Assembly: GCF_000275845.1 (NCBI RefSeq)
Contig: NW_006766908.1
Location: forward strand, 258,516-322,515
Origin: Dichomitus squalens LYAD-421 SS1
Lineage: Eukaryota > Basidiomycota > Agaricomycetes > Polyporales > Polyporaceae
Length of the DNA stretch: 64,000 nt
Direction of reading: 5' to 3'
The notes under the pieces were generated by a model. That model saw nothing but the letters and a program-made list of their open reading frames with translations. It was not told the origin of the DNA and made no database searches. Both the position numbers and the translations under genes were made by a program. Shown here in pieces: positions 34,072-35,757 of the stretch. The stretch's first letter is position 1, and each line of letters opens with the position of its first letter.

Positions 34072-34076
34072 TAGTC
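34072..34076. repeat. Target site duplication (left) of gag-only LTR element
   Basis: TAGTC directly precedes the left LTR and the same five bases follow the right LTR at 35601-35605. Five bases is the usual Copia/Gypsy duplication length. Confidence 0.9.
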
Positions 34077-34272
34077 TGTAGAAGTTCGAGGGCAAGCGGG
34101 CACAAATGGGATTCGCGTTTGGCCGGTGCAAACGCGTGCCGTACACAGTAGATACAATAAGGCTTATATACGTAGCTAAATAGGGGTAGATAAGGGCGCG
34201 GGTATCCGTCGGGGGGCGGGACCTGTGGCGCTCGTTCCGCGAGCTCGCCATCTTGACGCCAGGATTCCAACA
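34077..34272 (-). repeat. Left LTR (3' LTR)
   Basis: 196 bp, TG..CA termini, same sequence as the copy at 35405-35600. Confidence 0.95.
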
Positions 34273-34428
34273 CATCCCCTCGAGCGAGCGCGGGCAACGA
34301 GCGAAGGGTAACAAACAAATTGAACGGGGCGGGGATAAGGGAAACAGCGAGCAAGGAAGGAGGGGTTGTGTCCGCACAAATAAGGGATAACGTACGATAA
34401 GTCTAATACATCCCCTTAATCGGGGCGT

Positions 34429-35214
34429 TTACCACGCTTCCGTCTCCTTCTCGGCAAGAAGCCGATCGGCGCTAACGGTTGCCGAAAATGCGCAGTTGGC
34501 CTCTTCAGTCTTGAGCTCTGGGCAGTCGCGCTGATAGTGGCCCTTCTTTGAGCACTCGAAGCAGGTGATGCGCTCGAGCGGGGTGCGGGGCTTCGTGTAA
34601 GCAGCGAGGGCGACTTCGGAGTCATGATGAGGCGGGTTGAGGGACAATTGGCGCGACTCTTCGTTAAGTAAGCGGGTGATGACGTAATCGATGGTAAGCT
34701 CGCTAGGCGGGGTGGAGTCGAGATTAACGACCAGCTGGGAATACGAATCGGGGAGGCCATTCGTGAGAACGAGGATGCGGTCTTCATCGGAGATAGAGGC
34801 GTCAATCTCCTCGAGGCGGAAGGCGGCCCGGCGGACGTCAGCAATCCACGATGTCATCGTTTGATCCGGGCGCTTAGACAAGCGCCAGAAAGCGCGCCGG
34901 TGTGCGACCCGGGTACCAAAGCCGCGGGCGCGGTGGACTCGACGGAGCTCGGTCCAGACTTCGTGAACGTCTTGTGATTGGATGTGGGCGTACTGGGTGG
35001 GCTCGATATTCAAGATAATCTCGGCGCGCGCTTCTGCGATCTTCGCACGCCAGGCACGCACAGCCTTCGTGTTATCAGAGCCGGAGGGGCGGGTTTCATC
35101 AGCAGGGGCGCTCGTAACCTCCCAGAGACCCTTGCGAACAAGGAGGGCCTCCATGCCGATAACCCATTCGGCGTAGTTGTCGTCGGCGAGCTTCGCAATT
35201 GTGGGCGGTGCCAT
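34429..35214 (-). CDS. Copia-type Gag polyprotein (UBN2-like with zinc knuckle)
   Basis: A single 261-residue frame inside the LTR element. It begins with a Copia Gag N-terminus (KLADDNYAEWVIGMEALL), continues with a UBN2-type core (AHIQSQDVHEVWTELRRVH, then DRILVLTNGLPDSYSQLV) and contains a CCHC zinc knuckle, CFECSKKGHYQRDC (C-x2-C-x4-H-x4-C), that binds nucleic acid. It ends about 25 residues after a region ADRLLAEKETEAW with a normal stop and no pol continuation. Gag should form the particle that packages element RNA; mobility would need reverse transcriptase and integrase from a related full-length element elsewhere. Confidence 0.9.
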   Translation of the reverse strand: MAPPTIAKLADDNYAEWVIGMEALLVRKGLWEVTSAPADETRPSGSDNTKAVRAWRAKIAEARAEIILNIEPTQYAHIQSQDVHEVWTELRRVHRARGFGTRVAHRRAFWRLSKRPDQTMTSWIADVRRAAFRLEEIDASISDEDRILVLTNGLPDSYSQLVVNLDSTPPSELTIDYVITRLLNEESRQLSLNPPHHDSEVALAAYTKPRTPLERITCFECSKKGHYQRDCPELKTEEANCAFSATVSADRLLAEKETEAW

Positions 35215-35262
35215 CGGGGCGGGAGCAGCGGGGAGCGCGGGGCGGTCGCGGTTACGGGGTCG

Positions 35263-35345
35263 TCGGGGTGCACGGGGTCGTCGTCGGGTCGGTCGTCGTC
35301 GGGTCGGTCGTCGTCACGGGTCGTCGGTTCGTGGGATCGTCGAGT
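35263..35345. repeat. GTCGTCGGGTCG simple repeat in Gag leader
   Basis: Imperfect tandem GTCGTCGG/GTCGGTCGTC units between the 5' LTR and the Gag ATG. It is in the untranslated leader, where packaging or primer-binding signals would be expected, but none could be assigned. Confidence 0.7.
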
Positions 35346-35404
35346 GGCTTCGGCCCCACTAGGCAGTGCCTCGAATTATCCTTCGGGCAGAGGAGACGCG
35401 TTTG

Positions 35405-35600
35405 TGTAGAAGTTCGAGGGCAAGCGGGCACAAATGGGATTCGCGTTTGGCCGGTGCAAACGCGTGCCGTACACAGTAGATACAATAAGGCTTATATACG
35501 TAGCTAAATAGGGGTAGATAAGGGCGCGGGTATCCGTCGGGGGGCGGGACCTGTGGCGCTCGTTCCGCGAGCTCGCCATCTTGACGCCAGGATTCCAACA
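35405..35600 (-). repeat. Right LTR (5' LTR)
   Basis: 196 bp and the same as the left LTR. In element orientation it contains a GTATATAAG promoter motif that would drive transcription leftwards, away from the SPO7-like gene. Confidence 0.95.
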
Positions 35601-35757
35601 TAGTCATCTTTGTCGACGGTCGAGCATCGGCTGCGTGAAGGTCATGAACGATGAGAGCAGCCATATGTGGAACATGGAAGCGGTCAAGGTTAGGGTTCGC
35701 GTGTGCTTGGAGTGGGCTCAGAGTTCCCGGTTCACGACTTGTCCCCGACCACAACCT

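What the first reader, a model, noticed from the sequence alone, without database searches (positions are those of the whole stretch)
34072..35605. Gag-only LTR retroelement (TR-GAG-like) in a basidiomycete
Complete 1,524-bp element: two identical 196-bp LTRs, TG..CA ends, 5-bp duplication TAGTC and one intact 261-residue Copia Gag with a CCHC knuckle, but no pol. Gag-only LTR elements were described in plants; I do not recall fungal examples being established. Identical LTRs and an open Gag suggest it moved recently using enzymes supplied by another element.
Basis: partly seen in the sequence, partly recalled or inferred. Interest (0 to 1): 0.78.

Follow-up and report, generated by a model that had tools for sequence, protein, structure and literature searches.

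The report
Capsid-only jumping gene family in fungi
In a wood-decay fungus we find a family of small jumping genes that carry only the gene for their own protein shell and must borrow the copying enzymes from other elements; the shell gene is kept in working order, and its closest relatives in other mushrooms look like the same capsid-only kind, which suggests an old lineage rather than a recent accident.

Summary
It is not a lone deletion. The same genome holds 57 places with its LTR hairpin signature, seven further two-LTR copies, and a second Gag-only subfamily with a different 177-bp LTR. In 11 of 11 loci where the end of Gag is assembled, Gag is followed by a short 3' region and the LTR, never by pol. 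Gag is under purifying selection between copies (dN/dS 0-0.30). Other Copia loci have only 21-30% similar Gag, different LTRs and a different primer site. A 5.8-billion-protein search found 108 short Gag homologues (Ganoderma sinense 80%), but only 3 long gag-pol hits (at most 32%). Homologues share a natural C-terminus, an acidic tail ending in W or F (69 of 87). One distant homologue reads past Gag into an apparent PPT-LTR junction at similar spacing. Best explanation: a non-autonomous, TR-GAG-like Copia satellite lineage that makes its own capsid and borrows Pol, old in polypore fungi and their kin. Self-priming of reverse transcription is possible but unproven. New variant of a known kind.

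The parts
34072..34076 (.). Target-site duplication, left copy (TAGTC)
   Evidence: Sequence; equals 35601-35605
34077..34272 (-). 3' LTR in the sense of Gag (196 bp)
   Evidence: Direct repeat D1, 100% identical to 35405-35600
34273..34281 (-). Polypurine tract GAGGGGATG next to the 3' LTR (sense strand)
   Evidence: Sequence; printed for 11 of 11 loci scanned, GGGGGTG in L015
34409..34419 (-). Second, internal polypurine-tract-like motif TTAAGGGGATG, starting 12 nt after the last Gag codon
   Evidence: Found in 11 of 11 loci scanned, varying in step with the terminal tract
34429..35214 (-). Gag ORF, 261 aa plus stop; capsid domains, CCHC knuckle, acidic tail ending EAW
34522..34563 (-). CCHC zinc knuckle (Gag residues 218-231)
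   Evidence: Pfam zf-CCHC; invariant C218, C221, H226 and C231 in 39 aligned Gags
35215..35404 (-). 5' leader (190 nt) between 5' LTR and Gag
35396..35404 (-). CAAACGCGT: first 9 nt after the 5' LTR, at the primer-binding position
   Evidence: Complementary to ACGCGTTTG inside the LTR
35405..35600 (-). 5' LTR in the sense of Gag (196 bp)
35457..35465 (-). ACGCGTTTG in the LTR (position 136), 33 nt downstream of the start of TATATAAG; can pair with the 9 nt after the LTR or with a nearby CAAACGCG
35491..35498 (-). TATATAAG box in the 5' LTR
   Evidence: position 103 of the LTR
35601..35605 (.). Target-site duplication, right copy (TAGTC)

Best explanation
A non-autonomous Ty1/Copia-type LTR retrotransposon that encodes only its capsid/nucleocapsid protein. 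Shown: LTR-Gag-LTR layout, target duplications, many copies, recent insertions, purifying selection on Gag, and a Gag homologous over nearly its whole length to the Drosophila Copia VLP protein. Inferred: LTR-driven RNA makes Gag; Gag assembles particles and packages its own RNA, preferentially in cis, which would explain why selection keeps Gag open; reverse transcriptase, RNase H and integrase come from an autonomous Copia in the same cell; priming uses either the element's own 5' RNA end or an unidentified primer; the copy is integrated with a 5-bp duplication. Inferred from homologues: this is an old Gag-only lineage of agaricomycete fungi with a selected natural Gag C-terminus (acidic tail plus a final W or F), not a fresh deletion of a resident element.
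For: Layout and insertion. Copies: 43 matches; 57 LTR hairpins, 49 with the loop of this LTR type or close to it and 8 with that of the second type (sorted here by loop sequence); eight two-LTR copies including this one, all with 5-bp duplications (that of L011 is read across a gap, that of L018 comes); 26 of 40 single-LTR loci with TG..CA and an exact duplication. Second subfamily L015: Gag 91% identical, different LTR. Gag open from end to end in 4 copies of this subfamily, the window included, and in L015. dN/dS 0.00-0.30 in 27 of 28 pairs of 8 sequences, one pair undefined. No pol: 11 of 11 informative loci go Gag-stop-3' region-LTR. No partner: RVT_2 at 11 places, Gag at seven other Copia loci 21-30%, a different site after the LTR in 5 of 5 Copia elements read there. 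Old lineage: 108 short homologues; long candidates give 3 hits of at most 32%; a probe from a distant branch finds one long gag-pol, 26%; final W/F in 69 of 87, and in 18 of 24 representatives under 50% identity; P0076 reads past Gag into an apparent PPT-LTR junction. Capsid: PDB 8vvw E 6.4e-30 over 3-249; model pLDDT 88, tail 240-261 under 50.
Against: No expression or transposition data. The assembly has gaps inside many copies (L012, L016-L018 and others) and in several Copia loci, so an autonomous relative could be missing from it. Homologues other than P0076 were seen only as proteins that stop at Gag, so most could be the gag frame of two-ORF elements with a stop between gag and pol, as in Tca2 and VdLTRE5. 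The padded searches had no positive control with a known close gag-pol. In the larger tree one long-branch gag-pol row (P0110) fell among the Gag-only rows, and in the smaller one the support is only 81. Low dN/dS shows that Gag matters to propagation but does not by itself prove cis action.
Confidence: 0.8

Rival explanations
1. Recent internal-deletion derivative of an autonomous Copia of the same family, amplified by it, with the parent missing from or broken in this gapped assembly (ordinary TR-GAG origin, as for Arabidopsis AT5TE33540).
For: The Arabidopsis TR-GAG has a close autonomous relative (PMC8704663, passages). Many copies and several Copia loci here are interrupted by assembly gaps.
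Against: No Copia locus examined in the assembly has a near Gag, LTR or site after the LTR. Two subfamilies with different LTRs share the layout. Homologues at 40-80% are abundant among short proteins, against 3 long hits of at most 32%.
Confidence: 0.12
2. The family is autonomous in other species as a two-ORF element (gag, stop, pol), and the Gag C-terminus is conserved because of that; only the copies seen here have lost pol.
For: Copia elements with gag and pol separated by a stop exist in fungi (VdLTRE5, Tca2; passages of PMC3441728). Most homologues were seen as proteins only.
Against: In both subfamilies here the LTR follows the last Gag codon closely (159 nt in the window; 117 nt in L015). 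In the distant P0076 (42% identical), letters read as a PPT-LTR junction lie 138 nt after Gag, and the internal tract motif has the same 4-codon spacing.
Confidence: 0.15
3. Reverse transcription is self-primed as in Tf1: the RNA begins near ACGCGTTTG of the LTR and pairs with CAAACGCGT just after the 5' LTR.
For: 9-nt exact complement anchored at the first base after the LTR, kept in both LTR types. It lies 33 nt (this LTR) or 36 nt (second LTR) downstream of the start of a TATATA box. The five resident Copia elements show no anchored self-match of 8 nt or more; the best anchored one is 7 nt in L054. None of the 21 places with a 12-nt complement is among the 60 tRNA places.
Against: The same LTR motif also pairs with a nearby CAAACGCG (-11.3 against -11.9 kcal/mol), and the predicted fold prefers that local hairpin. 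Two tRNA genes (L084, L092) have 8 nt complementary to the same start, and two more 7 nt. Only 43 of 60 located tRNAs were read, none of them typed as methionine. The transcription start is unknown.
Confidence: 0.4
4. A domesticated host gag gene rather than a mobile element.
For: Gag is under purifying selection.
Against: LTRs, target duplications, identical LTR pairs and dispersed copies.
Confidence: 0.02

Closest known systems
[quoted passage not shown] Chaparro et al. 2015, not held; passages in PMC10025401 and PMC8704663)
   Same: LTRs around a single gag ORF, no pol, non-autonomous; one shown to transpose in Arabidopsis
   Different: Smaller (1.5 kb against a median of 4.8 kb for TR-GAG in PlantLTRdb); fungal; no autonomous relative with like Gag or LTR found; homologues are mostly Gag-only proteins of other fungi; 261-aa Gag against 562 aa in AT5TE33540
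Gag-only Copia families of the brown alga Ectocarpus (Copia-N1_Ec32, Copia-11_Ec32; PMC12477816, passage)
   Same: Copia families with one ORF similar to gag
   Different: Reported there as having at least partial homology to gag of fully autonomous elements; no sequence compared here
Drosophila Copia VLP protein (PDB 8vvw; capsid isoform from a spliced RNA, PMC11835246, passages)
   Same: Gag homologous over residues 3-249 (E 6.4e-30); a Gag product made without most of Pol
   Different: Copia also has a full gag-pol RNA; its spliced form keeps a small part of pol, mainly the protease region
Fungal GalEa Copia elements with a Conserved Hairpin Site instead of a PBS (PMC5445492, section 10)
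   Same: Fungal Copia without an evident tRNA site after the 5' LTR, and with 5-bp duplications
   Different: CHS is CTGATCAGT or CTAATTAGT in 85% of families, with an inverse copy downstream; here CAAACGCGT with the complement upstream in the LTR
Tf1 of fission yeast (self-priming, passages of PMC5445492)
   Same: Site after the LTR complementary to sequence near the presumed RNA 5' end
   Different: Tf1 is autonomous and Ty3/Gypsy-type (recalled); start site and priming untested here

Membership tests
TR-GAG | Two LTRs with TG..CA ends and a target-site duplication | tested here: met
TR-GAG | A single gag ORF and no pol | tested here: met
   11 of 11 informative loci
TR-GAG | PPT before the 3' LTR | tested here: met
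   GAGGGGATG next to the LTR
TR-GAG | tRNA-type PBS after the 5' LTR | tested here: inconclusive
   Best tRNA match 8 nt at the site among 43 tRNA genes read; 9 nt to its own LTR
TR-GAG | Mobilised in trans by an autonomous element | not testable with these tools
   Needs expression or transposition assays; RVT_2 at 11 places shows that enzyme sources may exist
Ty1/Copia superfamily | Copia-type Gag (PF14223) with CCHC | tested here: met
Ty1/Copia superfamily | Integrase upstream of reverse transcriptase in pol | not testable with these tools
   No pol in the element
Deletion derivative of a resident Copia | An autonomous element with the same LTR and leader in the genome | tested here: not met
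   LTR/leader junction found exactly at 8 places, all copies of the two subfamilies; LTR, interior and LTR2 find nothing better than E 0.1 in 14 Copia loci. Holds for this gapped assembly
Tf1-type self-priming | PBS complementary to the first nucleotides of the RNA | tested here: inconclusive
   9-nt complement present, start site unknown, local hairpin competes
Fungal GalEa with Conserved Hairpin Site | CTGATCAGT/CTAATTAGT-type palindrome right after the 5' LTR | tested here: not met
   Site reads CAAACGCGT

The most novel reading that the evidence does not exclude
A retrotransposon lineage that gave up pol long ago and has persisted through the radiation of agaricomycete fungi as a capsid-only satellite: it makes its own mature-length Gag, primes reverse transcription from its own RNA, and recruits foreign Copia enzymes, perhaps through the conserved acidic-aromatic Gag tail.
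Probability: 0.3. Interest if true: 0.82.

Novelty: new variant of a known kind. Interest (0 to 1): 0.62.

Why it matters
Gag-only LTR elements are usually read as derivatives that parasitise a parent. Here selection keeps Gag intact, no parent is found, and a wide family of fungal Gag proteins shares one natural C-terminus. That makes testable how a capsid gene alone can sustain a mobile lineage, whether Gag acts in cis on its own RNA, and how foreign Pol enters its particles. It also offers very small (1.5 kb) natural elements for such tests, and a way to recognise proteins now annotated as 'transcription factor' or 'hypothetical' as capsids.

Tried and rejected
Deletion derivative of a resident Copia: rejected for this assembly. 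Domesticated host gene: rejected. GalEa hairpin site: not met.

Gag end as a copy of the Gag/protease junction of gag-pol elements: some linkers look alike by eye, but a shuffle test gave 5 of 8 linkers against a mean of 2.83, with 498 of 5000 shuffles as high. Not shown, so left out of the explanation.

Relatives with DNA: the IMG/VR scan found none. Three loci with one-mismatch versions of the LTR/leader junction (L106-L108) held no LTR or interior match. Trees: POL_P0110 and P0107 (long branches) were dropped; with P0110 in, the gag-pol rows are not one group. P0085, P0106 and P0108 (under 200 aa) were left out of both trees, and the 21 of 108 homologues without a CCHC match from the tail counts and trees. 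In one search one tRNA-Tyr stretch has a 9-nt complement to the leader, but 19 nt away from the start of the site and partly in the flank of the tRNA gene.

Papers: ten searches of the held library. In the titles and abstract openings listed I saw no fungal gag-only or TR-GAG element; one search listed 20 of 149 papers. Passages of four fungal papers did not describe one either. Most subscription papers and Repbase reports are not held. Chaparro et al. 2015 is not held.

Full report
Observation. The element is exactly as described. It lies at 34077-35600, on the minus strand, with two 196-bp LTRs that do not differ at any base, TG..CA ends and TAGTC on both sides. Its longest sense frame is a 261-residue Gag; the next from an ATG has 123 residues. 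The Gag matches Retrotran_gag_2 (E 1.3e-27) and zf-CCHC above their cut-offs; DUF4219 falls just below its own. The host is probably a Dichomitus: the nearest named proteins are D. squalens fragments, one 98% identical over 60% of the query.

Copies. The own genome (40.3 Mb, 116 contigs) gave 43 matches to the element and 41 to the LTR, both limited by the tool. A pattern for the LTR hairpin, ACGCGTTTG-loop-CAAACGCG, is found 57 times, against 0 for the reversed pattern. By loop sequence, 49 are of this LTR type (one with a variant loop) and 8 of a second type. Eight loci have two LTRs and 5-bp duplications: the window, L009, L010, L011 (duplication read across a gap), L012, L016, L017 and L018 (AAGAA). 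Seven LTR pairs, all but that of L018, were compared and differ at 0, 0, 1, 0, 2, 0 and 0 positions. Of 40 single-LTR loci, 26 show TG..CA and an exact 5-bp duplication. Of the other 14, four end in an assembly gap (L013, L019, L020, L117), and L021 has the LTR plus 90 bp of interior.

A second subfamily. L015 (C11:572500-575400) carries a Gag that is 91% identical, but a different LTR of 177 bp and a different 3' region. This LTR matches at six further places over its full length and at one over 147 bp; six of these seven have exact 5-bp duplications. Between the two LTR types BLAST finds one short similar stretch, about 43 nt around the hairpin. So the Gag-only layout exists with two unlike LTRs.

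No pol. In 11 of 11 loci where the end of Gag is assembled (window, L009-L013, L015-L019), Gag is followed by a stop, a short 3' region and the PPT-LTR junction. L014, L020 and L021 do not cover the end of Gag and say nothing. Gag is open over all 261 residues in four copies, the window included, and over 257 from the matching ATG in L015, which has its own tail. L009 has a frameshift; L013 and L014 end at a gap or contig end. Between eight sequences, 27 of 28 pairs have a defined dN/dS, from 0.00 to 0.30; the pairs are not independent. A passenger frame would not be expected to show this.

No partner in the assembly. Copia reverse transcriptase (PF07727) matches at 11 places. Seven other loci match the Gag at 21-30%. 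Three of these (C16, C47, C23) also have the reverse transcriptase match; the other four contain assembly gaps. Five Copia elements with two LTRs were read at the site after the LTR. Four show GGTTATGAGCCC, and L054 shows TATGAGCCC by the called boundary. By recall this fits the anticodon region of a methionine tRNA; no methionine tRNA was read here. L045 has 100% identical LTRs and one 1,406-aa frame, so enzymes are plausibly available. Its LTR also begins TGTT and ends TCTACA. The exact LTR/leader junction of the Gag-only elements occurs at 8 places, all of them copies of the two subfamilies. The assembly has many gaps, so a missing partner cannot be excluded.

Relatives. A search of about 5.8 billion proteins gave 108 hits, all within the length filter of 144-457 aa: Ganoderma sinense 80% and 70%, Trametes pubescens 60%, Fomes, Hermanssonia, Phanerochaete, Phlebia and many metagenome proteins. 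With X-padding, so that only long proteins are candidates (5,890 of them), three gag-pol hits remain, at 32, 25 and 23%. A probe from a distant branch (P0070, 6,823 candidates) gives a 683-aa Mycena protein whose only listed Pfam domain is Gag (53% over 52% of the probe) and one gag-pol at 26%. No positive control for the padded search was run, and proteins between the two length ranges were only partly covered. In a tree of 96 rows, 9 of 10 gag-pol Gags sit together and the tenth, on a very long branch, strays. Without it and P0107, the nine form one side of a branch with SH-aLRT 81, not strong. So separation of Gag-only and gag-pol Gags is likely, not proven.

A conserved end. Of the 108 homologues 87 have a recognisable knuckle. 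Of these 69 end in W or F and 4 in Y; position -2 is A or V in 60%, and positions -4 and -6 are acidic in 51%. Under 50% identity, 18 of 24 representatives still end in W or F. The tail is otherwise hardly alignable and has low model confidence (residues 240-261 below pLDDT 50), as a disordered tail would. It therefore looks like a short motif at a natural C-terminus. A link to the Gag/protease junction of gag-pol elements was tested and not shown.

A layout kept over distance. P0076, a metagenome protein 42% identical, continues past the usual Gag end. Four codons later it has LRG, as the window does when read past its stop. After 138 nt it has GCVE preceded by W, which fits TGGGGNTGTGTTGA, that is, a PPT followed by an LTR start. 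The LTR begins 159 nt after the last Gag codon in the window and 117 nt after it in L015. The reading of P0076 rests on protein letters only, but it is the one distant relative whose 3' side could be seen, and it looks Gag-only. The internal tract-like motif 12 nt after Gag is present in 11 of 11 loci here and changes in step with the terminal tract (GGGGATG or GGGGGTG). Its role is unknown; a second plus-strand primer is a guess.

Capsid. The homologue profile matches the Drosophila Copia VLP protein 8vvw over residues 3-249 with E 6.4e-30. The AlphaFold model has mean pLDDT 88 and is mostly helical, as expected for a capsid. A fold comparison could not be run.

Priming. The nine bases after the 5' LTR (CAAACGCGT) are complementary to ACGCGTTTG within the LTR. 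That motif lies 33 nt downstream of the start of TATATAAG, and in the second LTR 36 nt downstream of TATATA. Among 43 tRNA genes read of 60 located, the best match to the start of the site is 8 nt (L084, L092). None of the 21 genomic places with a 12-nt complement is a located tRNA. But the LTR motif also pairs with a CAAACGCG a few bases away and the predicted fold prefers that. Self-priming is a fair hypothesis at about 0.4.

Mechanism. Most likely the LTR promoter makes one RNA that is both messenger and genome; Gag forms particles around it; Pol from another Copia enters and copies it; integrase inserts it with a 5-bp duplication. Gag, layout and insertion marks are shown; packaging in cis, Pol borrowing and priming are inferred. 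An origin by reverse transcription of a spliced Gag messenger is conceivable, since Drosophila Copia makes a capsid isoform by splicing (passages of PMC11835246), but it is speculation.

What is known. Gag-only LTR elements are established in plants as TR-GAG (passages of PMC10025401 and PMC8704663), including one shown to transpose, and Gag-only Copia families are reported in Ectocarpus (passage of PMC12477816). Ten searches of the held library listed no fungal example in titles or abstract openings. That does not cover subscription journals or Repbase. I file it as a new variant of a known kind: TR-GAG-like in layout, different in size, host, apparent age and lack of a parent.

Noticed in passing
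L015:1-2510 (G000 C11:572500-575010): Second Gag-only subfamily with an unlike 177-bp LTR; its 5' LTR holds a nested solo-LTR-like insert (TGTTGAAC..GTTCAACA) flanked by TGGCT, read by eye.
   Followed up: partly
window:34409-34419 and the matching place in 10 other loci: A second polypurine-tract-like motif 12 nt after the Gag end, varying in step with the terminal tract between subfamilies and apparently present in distant P0076.
   Followed up: partly
P0076 (metagenome protein, 340 aa): Gag frame running past its usual end into what reads as a PPT and LTR start.
   Followed up: yes
L109 (G000 C46:189500-193400): Two copies of this LTR in opposite orientation about 2.5 kb apart.
   Followed up: no
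L045 (G000 C16:237500-245500): Copia element with identical LTRs, a 1,406-aa frame and GGTTATGAGCCC after the LTR; possible enzyme source.
   Followed up: partly
P0001, P0003 (Ganoderma sinense): Gag proteins of this family are annotated as 'transcription factor' in public records.
   Followed up: no
L018:1276-1896: A gapped copy with about 620 bp of unrelated sequence inside Gag next to the assembly gap.
   Followed up: no
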